In this document: positions 25,329-64,000 of the stretch, piece by piece
Position numbering within the stretch: the first letter of the stretch is position 1
Layout: the number at the start of each line of letters is the position of its first letter
Assembly (NCBI RefSeq): GCF_026229185.1
Contig: NZ_JAGGJA010000004.1
Span: forward strand, 186,001 to 250,000
Length of the DNA: 64,000 nt
Source: Fodinibius salsisoli
Lineage (GTDB): Bacteria; Bacteroidota; Rhodothermia; Balneolales; Balneolaceae
Reading direction: 5' to 3'
Notes under the pieces: generated by a model
Told to the model about the DNA's origin: nothing
The model's input: only the letters and a program-made list of their open reading frames with translations
Database searches by the model: none
Made by a program: the position numbers and the translations under genes

Positions 25329-25509
25329 ATAGGTAATCCAGCCAATTCTATAGTTTAAAGAGAGGCAAGAGCTGTTTGTTAGTATATTCGTTATTGGTTG
25401 AACAGAGAATAGGTTGAGCATATCTGTACCAAATAACAGATAACCATTAACTAATAACGGTTAGATCAGTCTTGCTTTAAAAGAATGAATTGTGGGTAGG
25501 CTGGACGAC

Positions 25510-26855: not shown

Positions 26856-27365
26856 TTATTGATTTACCTTGGAGTGCTTCTTGCCGGTGTTGCTTTCCAG
26901 TCGTTTTTCGCAGGCTTCTACATCTTGGCAGGTACCAAAAAAGTGTAAGGAATGGCCTGTAATATTGAAGTCATGCATTTTGCCCATCATCGTTTTGATC
27001 TCCTGGATGCGAGGGTCACAGAATTCCAATACGGTGCCGCATTTTTTGCAAATGATGTGGTCGTGCTGCTGGTAGGCATAAGCACGTTCATAATAATACT
27101 GATTCTTACCGAATTGCTGGCGCTGCACAAGTCCACATTCAACCAGCAGGTCGAGTGTATTATAAACCGTTGCGCGCGAAACACGGGTACCGCCGTCTTT
27201 CATGTTAAAGAAGATGTCATCAGCGTCGAAATGACCATCAGCACTGTAAATTTCTTCCAGCACCATAAACCGTTCCGGCGTTTGGCGTTGATTGTGTTCT
27301 TTCAGGTAGGAGCTGAAAATCTCCTTAACCAAATCAATTGTTTCTTCCGTTGCTGGATGTGCCAT
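26856..27365 (-). CDS. Fur-family metal-responsive repressor
   Basis: Metal-dependent transcriptional repressor, 169 residues. The winged helix covers ~15-95 (RQTPERFMVLEEI, then TRVSRATVYNTLDLLVECGLV, the recognition helix). The dimerisation/metal domain carries H101 and H103 with C106/C109 in HDHIICKKCG. A second cysteine pair, C146 and C152 (GTCQDVEAC), has five residues between its members, wider than the common spacing. Whether it responds to iron, zinc or peroxide cannot be told. Possible targets in the window include the efflux locus and the TonB-receptor operon near 62.7 kb, but no Fur box was proven. It is divergent from the acyl-CoA ligase gene. Confidence 0.92.
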   Translation of the reverse strand: MAHPATEETIDLVKEIFSSYLKEHNQRQTPERFMVLEEIYSADGHFDADDIFFNMKDGGTRVSRATVYNTLDLLVECGLVQRQQFGKNQYYYERAYAYQQHDHIICKKCGTVLEFCDPRIQEIKTMMGKMHDFNITGHSLHFFGTCQDVEACEKRLESNTGKKHSKVNQ

Positions 27366-59302: not shown

Positions 59303-61570
59303 CTAAAAATATAGTTGATATAATAGCGAAATATTTCGTCCTGGTTCGGGCATCAGATTTTTGATACGGGATAGGTGGTCGCGATAGGTGGTATCAAAGA
59401 TGTTTTCGGCGTTGATAGAAAAAGTGTGTAAGAGATTACCAGACTGAAAGCGATATTGGCCGAACAGATCGACGACCGTATAACCATCAGTTGAGGTTTC
59501 AAAGTCACCAGTTCTGGTTTGTTTGGCTGCTATACGTGCTTTGCCGCCAAACTGAAATCCATCGTCGGCATAAGTAAGCCCGACAGTCGACTTAAGTGGT
59601 GGAATCATTGGCAGGGGTTGAATGTCATTAGCTTCGGGATCGATCTCCTGTTCGTTTTGAGTCAGCTCGCGTTCGCCATGAGTATAGCTTAACATACCGT
59701 TGAGGGCGATGTTTGAAAAAAGCTGAATCTCCGTTGCCACCTCGACACCATAAATGCGAGCATTGGCTCCTTTAAACTGATAGTCGTTGAGGGAGGGAAA
59801 ACGAGAATTTTGCCGACCCGTATTTCGGGGATAAATGTAGTTAGAGAAGCCGTTGTGGTAGCCAGTTACTTCGGCCGAAATATCATCTCCACGATAGCGT
59901 ACAAAAAGTTCCTTGCCTAAGCCCCGCTCCGGGTCGAGGTCCGGATTGCCTATTTCATAGGAGTAGGAGGCCAAGTGAGGGCCTTCGGAGTAGAGCTCTT
60001 CTTGCGAAGGCGGACGGAACGAATGCATGAGTGTACTTCCCAGGTAGTATCCCTGGCCAAAGTTGTAAATTGCTGATACGGAACTGGCCAGGGCATGGAA
60101 AGTGCGGCTGCGGATATGTCCAATTTCAGAATCAGGATTTTCTTCGGCAGGCACGGCACGGGAGTAATCATACCGCAGCCCACCTTCAAGATGCAGGCTG
60201 CCCCAATCGGTCTCTTCAACAATAAAAGCAGAGAAGCTATGGGCATCAGAGTCGGGGGTGTTAGCCCCATTGACAGCATAATCTTTGGTTTCAGCCCAGA
60301 GTCCCATGGTTCCTTTAGAAAAGATACCGAGGTCGGAATGATGGGCTTTCACCGAGGCATTGGTCGTCAGTAATCCGAATTCAGTACCGATAATGCCACC
60401 CGATTCGATTTCTTTATGGAAGTAATGTTTGTAGGAGATGTCAGCCGTGATAGAACGAAAACTGCTCTTCGGCAGGTATACTTCGGTAGCTCCTTCCACT
60501 TGATATTTTTCCATCTCAATATCTACACCCTCCGCATGACCACCCTCCGGATCTGGTGGAATACCATAATTGTTGAGGTACAGACTGGAGGCTGCCCCGA
60601 GATATCCCCAGGGACGAATATAGCTAAGGCCAAGAGCATTGTTGGTTGATTGGAGATCCGAATTTTCGAGCGTGCCGGCGGGAGTATTGAGATCACTGGC
60701 CGTACGATAATTGAGATCGGCTTGTACTGCAAAACTACCGATGGGCATACCGGCCTCTACAGCAGCATTTCCCCCTGTATTGACGGTCTCGCCCTGTAGC
60801 GTTGCTGTGCCATGAATATGGTCGGGCATGCTGTTGGCAATTTGATTGCGAACCACATTCACTACGCCTCCAATGGCATTGGAACCATAAATAAGAGCCG
60901 CCGGACCTCGGGCAATTTCAATTTCTTCGGCCGCCATGGGATCAATGGTTACCGCATGATCAGCTGATTGTGAGGAAACGTCGCCCGTGCGTTCGCCATC
61001 TTGCAGAATGAGCACACGTTCTCCGCCTAACCCCCGGATGACGGGCCGTGCAGGGGCAGAGCCCATGGAGCGAGAGCTGAAGCCGGGTAGATCATCCATC
61101 GTTTCGGATAGCGTAGTGCCGAGGTTTTGGCGCAGATCGGTTCCTGAAATCGATTTGGAGGCATGTTCAAGATTGGCATTACCGCCATTATCTTGACTAC
61201 CGACAACTTCTATTGCCCCTGAGCTGAATACCGTAGGTTGTAAGCTTATATCGACTACTGTGGTCTCATTTGCAGTAATTTCGATGGACTGGGAGACGGT
61301 TCGATATCCAATGCGTGTAACACGCAGGGTGTAGGTACCGGCCGGGATGTCACGAAATTCGTAAGTACCGTCGCTATGGGCGGTGATTGTTCGATTGGCT
61401 TCCTCCAGATACAAGTAGGCAAAACTAATGGGTTCGGATGTCTCACGATCTGTAATGGTACCGACTAACGTTCCGGCCTGGGTATCAGGGTCTGCTGCAG
61501 AAGTTTTCTTTATAGGCAAAAACATCACCAAAAAGAGTAGGAATAGGAGAAATGGTTTGGCTGAAAACAT
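59303..61570 (-). CDS. TonB-dependent receptor with carboxypeptidase-like domain (ZnuD-like)
   Basis: 755-residue outer-membrane receptor. A signal peptide (~1-25) is followed by a carboxypeptidase-regulatory-like domain (~33-115, GTLVGTITDRETSEPISFAY). The plug (~140-240) has RPVIRGLGGERVLILQDG and IARGPAALIYGSNAIGGVVNV. The 22-strand barrel ends in ISLLYQLYF. The plug segment SSQSADHAVTIDP and the loop GGHAEGVDIEM resemble ZnuD-type zinc/haem receptors. Its operon partners upstream on the same strand are His-rich exported proteins, which supports metal uptake. The substrate is inferred, not shown. Confidence 0.88.
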   Translation of the reverse strand: MFSAKPFLLFLLFLVMFLPIKKTSAADPDTQAGTLVGTITDRETSEPISFAYLYLEEANRTITAHSDGTYEFRDIPAGTYTLRVTRIGYRTVSQSIEITANETTVVDISLQPTVFSSGAIEVVGSQDNGGNANLEHASKSISGTDLRQNLGTTLSETMDDLPGFSSRSMGSAPARPVIRGLGGERVLILQDGERTGDVSSQSADHAVTIDPMAAEEIEIARGPAALIYGSNAIGGVVNVVRNQIANSMPDHIHGTATLQGETVNTGGNAAVEAGMPIGSFAVQADLNYRTASDLNTPAGTLENSDLQSTNNALGLSYIRPWGYLGAASSLYLNNYGIPPDPEGGHAEGVDIEMEKYQVEGATEVYLPKSSFRSITADISYKHYFHKEIESGGIIGTEFGLLTTNASVKAHHSDLGIFSKGTMGLWAETKDYAVNGANTPDSDAHSFSAFIVEETDWGSLHLEGGLRYDYSRAVPAEENPDSEIGHIRSRTFHALASSVSAIYNFGQGYYLGSTLMHSFRPPSQEELYSEGPHLASYSYEIGNPDLDPERGLGKELFVRYRGDDISAEVTGYHNGFSNYIYPRNTGRQNSRFPSLNDYQFKGANARIYGVEVATEIQLFSNIALNGMLSYTHGERELTQNEQEIDPEANDIQPLPMIPPLKSTVGLTYADDGFQFGGKARIAAKQTRTGDFETSTDGYTVVDLFGQYRFQSGNLLHTFSINAENIFDTTYRDHLSRIKNLMPEPGRNISLLYQLYF

Positions 61571-61685
61571 ATTAGTAATGGAAAAGTTTGATGAAATGCA
61601 GGCGTTTTGCTATACAATTTTTTGACAGCAAAACAATATGATACGACCGGTCAATCCCGGCCGTATCACTTAGATTAGCTGGACA

Positions 61686-62225
61686 TTAGTGCTCGTGCTC
61701 TCCATCACTATCGGCATCGATATGAAATTCGATGGCGTCATCCTGAGTTGTTGCAGGAGTTTCCAAGTGAGAGTGGGCATCTTCACCGCTGCCATGGTTA
61801 AGCAGAAATTGAATTTTAGACCCGCCTTCTGCCATTCCTTCGAGGTGGAATTCCCATTGGCCGTTGTCATCGTGCTGGTGGATGGCCAGTATATCCGTAT
61901 TTTCAATTTCCCATCCAAGGGAGTAGCCTTCCCCCAAATCTTCGGCGTGGACGTGCTCTCCTTCTTCATTGAGGAAATGTACTTCAAACAGGTATTCTTC
62001 ACCTACATGATAGTGCAGATGACTGTGTTCGGTTACTTCCCCAGTTATATCTGAATATTCATAAATAACTTCGCCGTCGTGAACGAGTTCTATTATCTCA
62101 GGATCGGTGTGTTCGTCGTCACTGCTGGCGGGATTGTCACTACAGGCGGTAACAAGAAGGGTGCTGAAAAGTGTTAATACTAAAAGAGTACGGGTATTGG
62201 TTGGTAAAGACTTAAAAATATTCAT
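61686..62225 (-). CDS. His-rich exported lipoprotein beside TonB receptor
   Basis: 179 residues. The lipoprotein signal is LVLTLFSTLLVTACSDN with the cysteine at ~28. The mature part is acidic and strongly His-rich: EHSHLHYHVGEEYLFEV, GEHVHAEDLGEG, IHQHDDNG, DAHSHLET and a C-terminal DSDGEHEH. No named domain is recognised. It is well suited to binding zinc, copper or nickel at the outer membrane, handing metal to or buffering the adjacent TonB receptor, whose start lies 115 bases downstream. A perfect 14-base palindrome sits 30 bases before its start codon, outside the gene. Confidence 0.78.
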   Translation of the reverse strand: MNIFKSLPTNTRTLLVLTLFSTLLVTACSDNPASSDDEHTDPEIIELVHDGEVIYEYSDITGEVTEHSHLHYHVGEEYLFEVHFLNEEGEHVHAEDLGEGYSLGWEIENTDILAIHQHDDNGQWEFHLEGMAEGGSKIQFLLNHGSGEDAHSHLETPATTQDDAIEFHIDADSDGEHEH

Positions 62226-62254
62226 GATTTTAATATAGATTTATTTGGGTAGGG

Positions 62255-62268
62255 GTATATCGATATAC
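62255..62268. promoter_or_regulatory. Perfect 14-base palindrome upstream of the His-rich lipoprotein
   Basis: GTATATCGATATAC, fully self-complementary, in the gap between the two His-protein genes. It could be an operator or chance in AT-rich DNA; no binding protein is implied by sequence alone. Confidence 0.35.
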
Positions 62269-62312
62269 TCATCGTATAGCCCTATAATAATGTGATAAGA
62301 TGCGTCGGGAAT

Positions 62313-62633
62313 CTATACCAAAACCGGAGGAGAGCGGCCAGGATTTGTAGTAGTGGTGTGGTCATATACCTGAATATTTTGTTCAATAATGATTGTCCTG
62401 GCATCAAACAAAATATCACCTGAGGGAGAACCACTAAGAACTTCTTTCTCGTATAAATGAGCTACGATTGGACAGAAAGTAGTATCAGCGGACAGACAAT
62501 GACCCGTATCTGCGAAATCCGGCGGATGACTTAGCTCAAGGTGATGGTGCGAGTGAAGCGTAGTAATCGTGAGGCCGATGCCAGTAAGCATCAGCAAAAA
62601 CAGACTGATTTTTAATCGGATACTACGTTTCAT
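62313..62633 (-). CDS. Small exported His-cluster protein at head of the receptor operon
   Basis: 106 residues from the ATG at 62633; an in-frame TTG 30 bases upstream is less likely. A signal helix (LKISLFLLMLTGIGLTITTL) leads directly into HSHHHLELSHP, then FADTGHCLSADTTFCPIVAHL with two cysteines, and a Thr/Pro-rich tail (YDHTTTTNPGRSPP). No family is recognised. The His cluster right after the signal peptide, plus paired cysteines, suits a metal-handling periplasmic protein. It precedes the His-rich lipoprotein and TonB receptor on the same strand (87 and 115 bases between). Confidence 0.65.
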   Translation of the reverse strand: MKRSIRLKISLFLLMLTGIGLTITTLHSHHHLELSHPPDFADTGHCLSADTTFCPIVAHLYEKEVLSGSPSGDILFDARTIIIEQNIQVYDHTTTTNPGRSPPVLV

Positions 62634-62686
62634 ACGTCTCAATGATATTTTAACCAAAGACAAACCTAAAGTTAGACTTTTACTGT

Positions 62687-62799: not shown

Positions 62800-63159
62800 A
62801 TGGCTGAAGTTATTGAATCGTTGAGAGTTTGGTTTTGGGGATTAGGGGAACAATATGGCGTTAATCCCATTATTTTTGGCAGTATCTATGTAGGGGCTAT
62901 TCCTTTTTTTACGGCTTCTCTTGCATGGCTTTATCGGAATTATCGACTAAATAAATCCATTATACTGCCAGCCTTTAGTGCAATAGGATTTTTTATATCT
63001 GCCTATATCTATCTCCTTTTTGCAGGGGAAAATATTCCCTGGTGGGTCTATGGATTAGTCATTTTGATGGTGATATTAGGGGCTTATTCAACTTGTCAAA
63101 AGGTACGACGGAAGATTAAAAAAATAGACAAAAAGATTTCTACAGATGGCAAAATATGA
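62800..63159 (+). CDS. Small three-helix membrane protein coupled to a flavoprotein disulfide reductase
   Basis: 119 residues; no family recognised. Three helices are seen (~24-45, VNPIIFGSIYVGAIPFFTASL; 53-74; 78-98), preceded by an amphipathic N-terminus and followed by a basic, lysine-rich C-terminus (KVRRKIKKIDKKI). It overlaps the next gene's start by 14 bases in a different frame, so the two proteins are probably made together. Its position suggests an inner-membrane partner or anchor for the soluble reductase, analogous in arrangement to TVP38-type proteins often joined to similar reductases, although this protein is shorter and does not show that motif. Confidence 0.75.
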   Translation: MAEVIESLRVWFWGLGEQYGVNPIIFGSIYVGAIPFFTASLAWLYRNYRLNKSIILPAFSAIGFFISAYIYLLFAGENIPWWVYGLVILMVILGAYSTCQKVRRKIKKIDKKISTDGKI

Positions 63160-64000
63160 TTTTGATGCTATAGTTATCGGTGGCGGAGCTGCAGGTCTAA
63201 CGGCCTCAGGCATTGCGGCCAATTTTGGTGCCAAGACGATGATGATCGAAAAAGACCGTCTCGGGGGTGACTGTACCTGGACCGGTTGCGTGCCGAGTAA
63301 GGTACTGCTTAAAGCAGGTAAAGTAGCTCATCAGATAAAGCATGCCAGCCAATTTGGACTGATTGATCAACAGCCGGAAATCAATTTTGAAAAGGTTATT
63401 GAGCATATCCACCAAACACGGCAGGATATCTACGAAGATGCTGATCGACCGGAAATTTTTGAAGACATGGGGATTGAAGTCGTTAAGGGAGTAGCCCATT
63501 TTTTGGATGATCATCAAGTAGCGATACAGCTTGAAGACGGTACCACACGCCGGGTAAGTGCCCGCTATTTCATTATCTGTGCCGGGGCCAGTGCTTTTAC
63601 TCCACCAATTGAGGGACTTAATAATGTTAGCTACTTAACGAATGATTCACTTTTTGAAATTTCAGACTTGCCACAGGAGTTAACGGTTATAGGAGCAGGG
63701 CCTATCGGTACAGAGATGGCTCAGGCACTGGAACGATTGGGCTCAACTGTTACGGTAATTGACGTAGCTGATCGTATTATGACTAATGATGATCCTGAGC
63801 TTACCGGTAAGTTAAAAGAGTCACTTGAGAAAGAGGGCATCAAGTATGTGCTTGGGGCTGAGGTAAAAAGGGTGTCCCAGAGGGGGGATGCAATTATTAC
63901 TGCGGTTGAGTGCCAAGGTGAGGAAAAGCAAATAACCGGGGATCAGCTTTTGATGGCAACCGGCAGGCGAGCTAATGTAGACGGTCTTGGGCTGGATGCT
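63146..64000 (+). CDS. Mercuric-reductase/lipoamide-dehydrogenase-type flavoprotein (partial, runs off window)
   Basis: Class I pyridine-nucleotide disulfide oxidoreductase; 285 codons are visible. The FAD loop is AIVIGGGAAGLTASGIAAN (~8-26). The redox-active pair is in GGDCTWTGCVPSK, the CxxxxC motif typical of this class. A second nucleotide loop is VIGAGPIGTEMAQALERLG, followed by LLMATGRRAN. It lacks an N-terminal HMA domain, unlike many MerA proteins, so mercury is not implied. The catalytic C-terminal residues lie beyond the window. Its start codon overlaps the membrane-protein gene. Confidence 0.9.
   Translation, partial: MAKYDFDAIVIGGGAAGLTASGIAANFGAKTMMIEKDRLGGDCTWTGCVPSKVLLKAGKVAHQIKHASQFGLIDQQPEINFEKVIEHIHQTRQDIYEDADRPEIFEDMGIEVVKGVAHFLDDHQVAIQLEDGTTRRVSARYFIICAGASAFTPPIEGLNNVSYLTNDSLFEISDLPQELTVIGAGPIGTEMAQALERLGSTVTVIDVADRIMTNDDPELTGKLKESLEKEGIKYVLGAEVKRVSQRGDAIITAVECQGEEKQITGDQLLMATGRRANVDGLGLDA

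What the first reader, a model, noticed from the sequence alone, without database searches (positions are those of the whole stretch)
59303..62633. Three-gene His-rich metal-uptake operon
A small protein with HSHHH right after its signal peptide, an acidic His-rich lipoprotein and a ZnuD-like TonB receptor lie on one strand. The two small proteins match no family I know. The set looks like a dedicated outer-membrane metal-acquisition unit with its own surface and periplasmic chelators.
Basis: partly seen in the sequence, partly recalled or inferred. Interest (0 to 1): 0.6.

Follow-up and report, generated by a model that had tools for sequence, protein, structure and literature searches.

The report
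Metal-sensing leader ORF before zinc importer
The three genes form a zinc-uptake unit, but the first small protein is probably not a metal sponge: it looks like a sensor read while the ribosome is still making it, which switches the uptake genes on or off, a type of control so far shown for copper and here apparently adapted to zinc.

Summary
In detail: a small HSHHH protein (ATG 62633), a His-rich lipoprotein and a ZnuD-like TonB receptor lie in tandem on the minus strand, and the order is conserved across Balneolales and beyond. The receptor keeps all four zinc ligands of Neisseria ZnuD (131 of 132 non-redundant relatives), and Foldseek ranks ZnuD first. The small protein, however, carries the signature of a CruR/CutF-type upstream ORF: an N-terminal membrane segment, His/Cys ligands, a Cys 45 residues before an R-S-P-P arrest motif, and a stop codon three residues later. 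Among 131 related receptor genes, 99 have such an ORF upstream on the same strand and 0 on the opposite strand; all 88 non-redundant ORFs place a Cys 38-52 residues before the motif although the linker is about 8% identical. The mRNA around its end is C-rich and G-poor, as in the Rho-dependent terminator of CruR. The same ORF family also heads znuABC-type operons and the zinc chaperone gene zigA. Best reading: a nascent-chain metal sensor, probably for zinc, that controls zinc import post-transcriptionally. It is a new variant of a known kind (CruR senses copper). Metal response and stalling are untested.

The parts
62313..62633 (-). small protein gene, proposed metal-sensing arrest-peptide upstream ORF (106 aa from ATG; in-frame TTG at 62663)
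   Evidence: conserved in position and motifs across relatives
62541..62555 (-). codons of HSHHH just after the membrane segment; HxH invariant in 29 of 29 aligned members
   Evidence: invariant H27, H29
62472..62474 (-). codon of Cys54 (CPIV; second Cys of CXXC lost here), 45 residues before the R of RSPP
62325..62336 (-). codons CGC TCT CCT CCG of the RSPP arrest-like motif, followed by VLV and stop
   Evidence: R100, P102, P103 invariant in 29 of 29
62226..62390 (-). last 78 nt of the small ORF plus 87-nt intergenic region, C-rich and G-poor (skew +0.30), candidate Rho-utilisation/termination region
   Evidence: function inferred by analogy with CruR
61686..62225 (-). acidic His-rich Ig-like lipoprotein
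59303..61570 (-). ZnuD-like TonB-dependent receptor
60956..60961 (-). codons of Asp204-His205, aligned with ZnuD zinc ligands Asp99-His100
60410..60412 (-). codon of Glu387, aligned with ZnuD zinc ligand Glu340
59975..59977 (-). codon of His532, aligned with ZnuD zinc ligand His499

Best explanation
The locus is a zinc-import operon led by a regulatory uORF. Proposed working: the operon is transcribed from upstream of 62633. While the 106-aa leader protein is translated, its N-terminal segment is targeted to the membrane and the ribosome pauses with R-S-P at the P site and Pro at the A site. At that moment the Cys (45 residues back) and the His-rich stretch have just cleared the exit tunnel. 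When zinc is scarce the stalled ribosome covers the C-rich end of the ORF and keeps Rho from ending transcription, so the lipoprotein and the ZnuD-like receptor are made. When zinc is plentiful it binds the His/Cys cluster, pulls the chain forward, releases the ribosome, and Rho stops transcription before the lipoprotein gene. The lipoprotein and receptor then bring zinc across the outer membrane. Shown here: gene order, conservation of motifs and spacing, zinc-ligand conservation, C>G bias, zinc-gene contexts. Inferred: stalling, metal identity, Rho step, sign of the response, and the role of the lipoprotein (zinc capture or hand-off).
For: uORF anatomy: 29 of 29 aligned members keep HxH, Cys54, R100, P102, P103; C-to-R spacing is 45 residues in nearly all, close to the 45 between CXXC and RAPP in CruR. 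Position: of 131 ZnuD-like receptor ORFs with at least 1200 nt upstream, 99 have a 60-170 aa ORF with the tail on the same strand, 0 on the opposite strand; 88 of 88 non-redundant ORFs have a Cys 38-52 residues before the motif, linker identity 7.9%. An earlier count on overlapping loci: 54 of 70 loci against 16 of 1926 control ORFs. In the window only 1 of 186 ORFs of 60-170 aa has such a tail. C>G skew around the ORF end: median 0.27 in 29 loci, 0.00 in 115 control gaps, p 5e-12. Zinc: four ZnuD ligands kept in 131 of 132 non-redundant receptors, Foldseek ranks 1-4 ZnuD, NCBIfam best hit ZnuD although below cut-off. Context: znuA-C-B-Fur directly before the uORF in L156; the uORF heads ZnuA/ABC-3 operons in L163, L145 and (second copy) L040; uORF before ZigA in L167; ZigA directly after the receptor in L216 and L222, all three ZigA hits over the NCBIfam cut-off. 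In L145 (same genus) the same uORF beside the same divergent gene pair carries an ABC importer instead of lipoprotein and receptor.
Against: No expression, stalling or metal-binding data. The window member has lost the second Cys of CXXC, which CruR needs for copper sensing; 45 of 88 relatives keep CXXC. RSPP was only partly permissive in other arrest peptides. Only 1 of 29 members passes the DUF2946 cut-off. The uORF is missing in 6 of 38 order loci and 8 of 29 phylum loci with the lipoprotein. No common hairpin in the gap (8 of 25 with z below -2). The C>G bias in the coding part partly follows from its amino acids: third positions show no excess. The ABC components are below NCBIfam cut-offs and score nearly as well as manganese systems. 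No ZnuA in this genome.
Confidence: 0.68

Rival explanations
1. Same kind of arrest-peptide uORF, but it senses copper (as CruR) or several metals rather than zinc.
For: The characterised relatives CruR and CutF sense copper; about half of the relatives have CXXC; OprC, a copper receptor, is the second structural match; one member is a DUF2946 by Pfam.
Against: Receptor keeps the complete ZnuD zinc site and has no Cys; neighbours in relatives are znuABC-like, Fur and ZigA; the window member lacks CXXC.
Confidence: 0.17
2. One reading: the small protein is an exported periplasmic or surface metal chelator/chaperone serving the receptor.
For: Export-type N terminus, HSHHH, conserved next to the receptor. 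The CutF authors at first took their protein for a chaperone (stated).
Against: Sequence between Cys and RxPP drifts freely while its length is fixed; conserved residues sit at the very C terminus; the ORF also precedes ABC-importer genes and a cytosolic GTPase.
Confidence: 0.1
3. The operon is controlled mainly by a Fur/Zur-type repressor and the small ORF is incidental.
For: A Fur-family gene adjoins the unit in L156; zinc receptors elsewhere are Zur-repressed.
Against: Only one Fur-family gene in this 98%-complete genome; no palindrome shared by the upstream regions of 29 loci was seen; incidental ORFs would not keep motif and spacing.
Confidence: 0.05

Closest known systems
CruR (Bp2923, DUF2946) leader of cruR-bfrG/crtA-bp2921, Bordetella pertussis
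   Same: Short exported ORF heading a TonB-receptor operon; C-terminal RxPP a few residues before stop; Cys about 45 residues upstream; C>G bubble at its end.
   Different: CruR senses copper through CXXC; here RSPP, CPIV without CXXC, many His, an extra lipoprotein gene, a ZnuD-type receptor and zinc-gene contexts.
CutF leader of cutFOG, Rhodobacter capsulatus, and CutF-like proteins
   Same: Exported nascent metal sensor with proline motif near the C terminus; the published survey already includes Bacteroidota and TonB neighbours.
   Different: CutF switches on a multicopper oxidase through an mRNA stem-loop; no comparable common hairpin found here; the main text does not mention zinc.
ZnuD, Neisseria meningitidis
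   Same: TonB-dependent receptor with Asp-His-Glu-His high-affinity zinc site; best structural match.
   Different: About 24% identity, an extra N-terminal carboxypeptidase-regulatory domain, well below the NCBIfam ZnuD cut-off; lipoprotein and uORF partners not reported in the passages read.
RAPP/RGPP small proteins upstream of TonB receptors (EMBO J 2025 survey)
   Same: C-terminal RxPP uORFs with signal sequence before TonB receptors throughout Gram-negatives.
   Different: No zinc role assigned: the word count for zinc in that paper is 0.

Membership tests
CruR/DUF2946 metal-responsive uORF | Pfam DUF2946 match over gathering score | tested here: not met
   Window protein: no match. One of 29 relatives passes (25.7 vs 23.7 bits, L040).
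CruR/DUF2946 metal-responsive uORF | RAPP motif a few residues before the C terminus | tested here: met
   RSPP + 3 residues in the window; R[A/S]PP in 29 of 29 aligned members, which were picked by that tail; RSPP is a variant.
CruR/DUF2946 metal-responsive uORF | CXXC metal motif | tested here: not met
   Window has CPIV; 45 of 88 non-redundant relatives have CXXC at the conserved distance.
CruR/DUF2946 metal-responsive uORF | fixed spacing of about 45 residues between Cys motif and RxPP | tested here: met
   45 residues in the window; 88 of 88 relatives within 38-52, mean 44.3, sd 2.5.
CruR/DUF2946 metal-responsive uORF | first gene of a metal operon, followed by TonB receptor or other metal genes | tested here: met
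CruR/DUF2946 metal-responsive uORF | translation arrest at RxPP, metal response and Rho-dependent termination | not testable with these tools
   Only C>G bias could be measured.
ZnuD zinc receptor | Asp99, His100, Glu340, His499 zinc ligands | tested here: met
   D204, H205, E387, H532 aligned; invariant in 36 of 36 and 131 of 132 non-redundant.
ZnuD zinc receptor | NCBIfam NF038289 curated cut-off (950 bits) | tested here: not met
   230.6 bits, though the best of 30 families.
Zur-regulated zinc operon | Zur box upstream | tested here: inconclusive
   No palindrome shared among 29 upstream regions; one Fur-family gene in the genome.
SusD/HmuY-like surface lipoprotein partner of a TonB receptor | lipoprotein encoded beside the receptor and sharing its substrate | tested here: inconclusive
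   Adjacency conserved; Ig-like fold; surface location and zinc binding not testable here.

The most novel reading that the evidence does not exclude
A family of zinc-responsive arrest-peptide uORFs (His/Cys cluster, 45-residue ruler, RxPP-stop) controls zinc import in Bacteroidota and neighbouring phyla (seen also in records labelled Gemmatimonadetes, Latescibacterota, KSB1, Zixiibacteriota and Neomarinimicrobiota): one leader type fronts receptors, znuABC-type importers and the ZigA chaperone, giving a post-transcriptional zinc switch in lineages such as this one with only one Fur-family regulator.
Probability: 0.57. Interest if true: 0.8.

Novelty: new variant of a known kind. Interest (0 to 1): 0.62.

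Why it matters
CruR and CutF established that a nascent protein can sense copper. A zinc version would show that the scheme is general, with exchangeable metal ligands in front of a constant ruler and arrest motif. [quoted passage not shown] It also turns many hypothetical small proteins into testable sensors, and adds a conserved Ig-like His-rich lipoprotein as a probable zinc-uptake component.

Tried and rejected
Small protein as chelator: rejected as main reading because of the C-terminal motif, the spacing ruler and the gene contexts. Zur box: the window has a palindrome (TATTTGTTACAAATA upstream of the small ORF) but nothing comparable is shared by the 29 upstream regions. Conserved terminator or RBS-masking hairpin in the gap: not found as a common feature. 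DUF2946 as a direct family label: rejected for the window protein, kept as a distant link through L040. Sequence relatives of the lipoprotein in PDB: only weak Ig-like matches. Literature on zinc arrest peptides: searches in the open-access library showed none; subscription papers and preprints were not searched, supplements were not read. Papers: PMC9426467 abstract, outline, second of three parts of Results, sections 9 and 10, Discussion; PMC9973294 abstract, outline, sections 10-12 and passages; PMC12992588, PMC10987492, PMC12914433, PMC4176598, PMC4557270, PMC10951233 passages only.

Full report
WHAT IS THERE. On the minus strand: small ORF 62313-62633, lipoprotein 61686-62225, receptor 59303-61570. 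The next minus-strand genes (LEA_2 protein, a kinase-like protein by reading) show no metal link. The window lies in a 4.85-Mb, 98%-complete genome. Contigs of two same-genus genomes have the lengths of Fodinibius sediminis DSM 21194 and Aliifodinibius salipaludis WN023 contigs (206747 and 77017), so the source is a Fodinibius-like member of Balneolales (inference).

CONSERVATION. The lipoprotein was found in 38 of 58 relatives and, with a profile, in 98 of 394 genomes of the phylum; the small protein profile found 58 of 394. Thirty-seven order loci plus the window were compared after dropping L066, a spurious second hit: the receptor follows directly in 36, is split in L046 and cut off in L058; the small ORF with R[A/S]PP precedes in 29, with three further cases at contig edges or with RDPP and six without. 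Among 29 phylum-wide loci with the lipoprotein, 21 have the tailed small ORF upstream.

THE SMALL PROTEIN. Alignment A1 (29 members, picked by the tail; 26% mean column identity) keeps only H27, H29, C54, R100, P102 and P103. The stretch from Cys to Arg is 45 residues in nearly all although its sequence drifts. For 131 ZnuD-like receptor ORFs with at least 1200 nt upstream, 99 have a 60-170 aa tailed ORF on the same strand, 0 on the opposite one (the 131 include some duplicates from overlapping locus sets). Of 88 non-redundant ORFs, 57 end in RAPP, 16 in RSPP, 12 in RGPP, one each in RDPP, KAPP and KSPP; 76 have two or three residues after PP; 88 of 88 have a Cys 38-52 residues before the motif, 45 with CXXC; 84 have HxH or HH; the linker is 7.9% identical. 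An earlier count on 80 named loci gave 54 of 70 against 16 of 1926 control ORFs (Fisher p about 1e-76, not corrected for relatedness). In the window, 1 of 186 ORFs of that size has such a tail.

LITERATURE LINK. CruR is a DUF2946 uORF in front of a TonB receptor: CXXC senses copper, RAPP arrests the ribosome, 45 residues lie between, and release lets Rho end transcription from a C>G bubble. Arrest of CruR was later shown in vitro, and RxPP small proteins before TonB receptors were found throughout Gram-negatives. CutF-like proteins are common in Bacteroidota and often precede TonB genes. [quoted passage not shown] The window protein fits by anatomy, but it lacks CXXC and is not itself a DUF2946 by Pfam. 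That a Cys 45 residues back would lie near the tunnel exit is general knowledge, not from a call.

RNA LEVEL. The last 78 nt of the ORF plus up to 78 nt of the gap have more C than G in all 28 loci compared; median skew 0.27 in 29 loci against 0.00 in 115 co-directional control gaps of the same loci (p 5e-12), and the window's gap, 0.30, is the highest of its 16. This matches a Rho site, but the coding part is partly explained by amino-acid use (third positions show no excess) and the loci are related. No shared hairpin was found.

THE RECEPTOR. Best NCBIfam hit ZnuD (4e-68, below cut-off), best PDB sequence ZnuD 4rdr (2e-44). ZnuD's zinc ligands Asp99, His100, Glu340, His499 (passage) align with D204, H205, E387, H532 (mapping by a constant offset of 14 in the chain numbering, worked out by hand) and are kept in 36 of 36 and 131 of 132 non-redundant relatives, the exception having a gap in the split gene of L046. 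The AlphaFold2 model (pLDDT 84) matches ZnuD at ranks 1-4, then OprC. Lower-scoring receptors in the same loci carry mostly R-H-S-H or E-H-E-H instead.

ZINC CONTEXT. L156: ZnuA, ATPase, ABC-3 permease, Fur, uORF, lipoprotein, receptor on one strand. L163 and L145: uORF, a 393-395 aa probable outer-membrane protein without Pfam match, ZnuA, ABC-3 permease (ATPase also in L163). L040: first unit uORF-lipoprotein-receptor, then a second RSPP ORF very like the window's, followed by the same kind of protein, ZnuA and permease. L167: uORF, then ZigA. L216, L222: receptor, then ZigA. ZigA hits exceed the NCBIfam cut-off; ABC proteins do not, and manganese models are close. In L145 the ORF stands beside the same divergent gene pair as in the window, so the downstream cargo was exchanged while the leader stayed. 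This genome has two ZIP genes over cut-off and no ZnuA, so inner-membrane import may run through ZIP (inference).

THE LIPOPROTEIN. Lipobox Cys, W124, H144 and H151 (LxHxxHSDF) are the conserved points; the long His/Asp stretches of the window protein are lineage embellishments. The model is an Ig-like sandwich (pLDDT 87; weak Foldseek matches to S-layer and other Ig-type domains). In other classes the domain is often duplicated. A role in zinc capture or hand-off is inferred.

VERDICT. A zinc-uptake operon with a CruR-like leader. Arrest-type uORF: very likely from sequence. Zinc as the metal: likely. Mechanism details: by analogy.

Noticed in passing
L143 5703-6054, L144 5335-5707, and downstream of the receptor in L034-L037 and L041: A second type of leader ORF, ending in N-K-S-P-P where complete (truncated in L034), with HxH and usually CxAC, precedes a paralogous receptor whose ligand positions read R-H-S-H: probably a sister switch for another substrate.
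   Followed up: partly
L145 2169-3350 (-), L163 5678-6865 (+), L040: A 393-407 aa protein family without Pfam match, probably outer membrane, sits between the leader ORF and ZnuA in three genomes.
   Followed up: partly
window 62800-64000 (+): A 119-aa membrane protein and a FAD-containing oxidoreductase (MerA/lipoamide dehydrogenase-like) diverge from the operon; the same pair flanks the leader ORF in several relatives (L032, L041, L143, L145, L172, L173).
   Followed up: no
window 26862-27362 (-): The only Fur-family regulator found in the genome lies in this same window.
   Followed up: partly
L152, L153, L156, L160 and others: Lipoprotein with two tandem Ig-like domains (about 270-290 aa) in other Bacteroidota classes.
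   Followed up: no
L046 6477-8702 (-): Receptor gene split into two ORFs in one relative, apparently a frameshift or assembly error.
   Followed up: no
window 25421-25509 (-): Another intergenic gap with strong C>G skew (0.28); no RxPP-tailed small ORF there.
   Followed up: no
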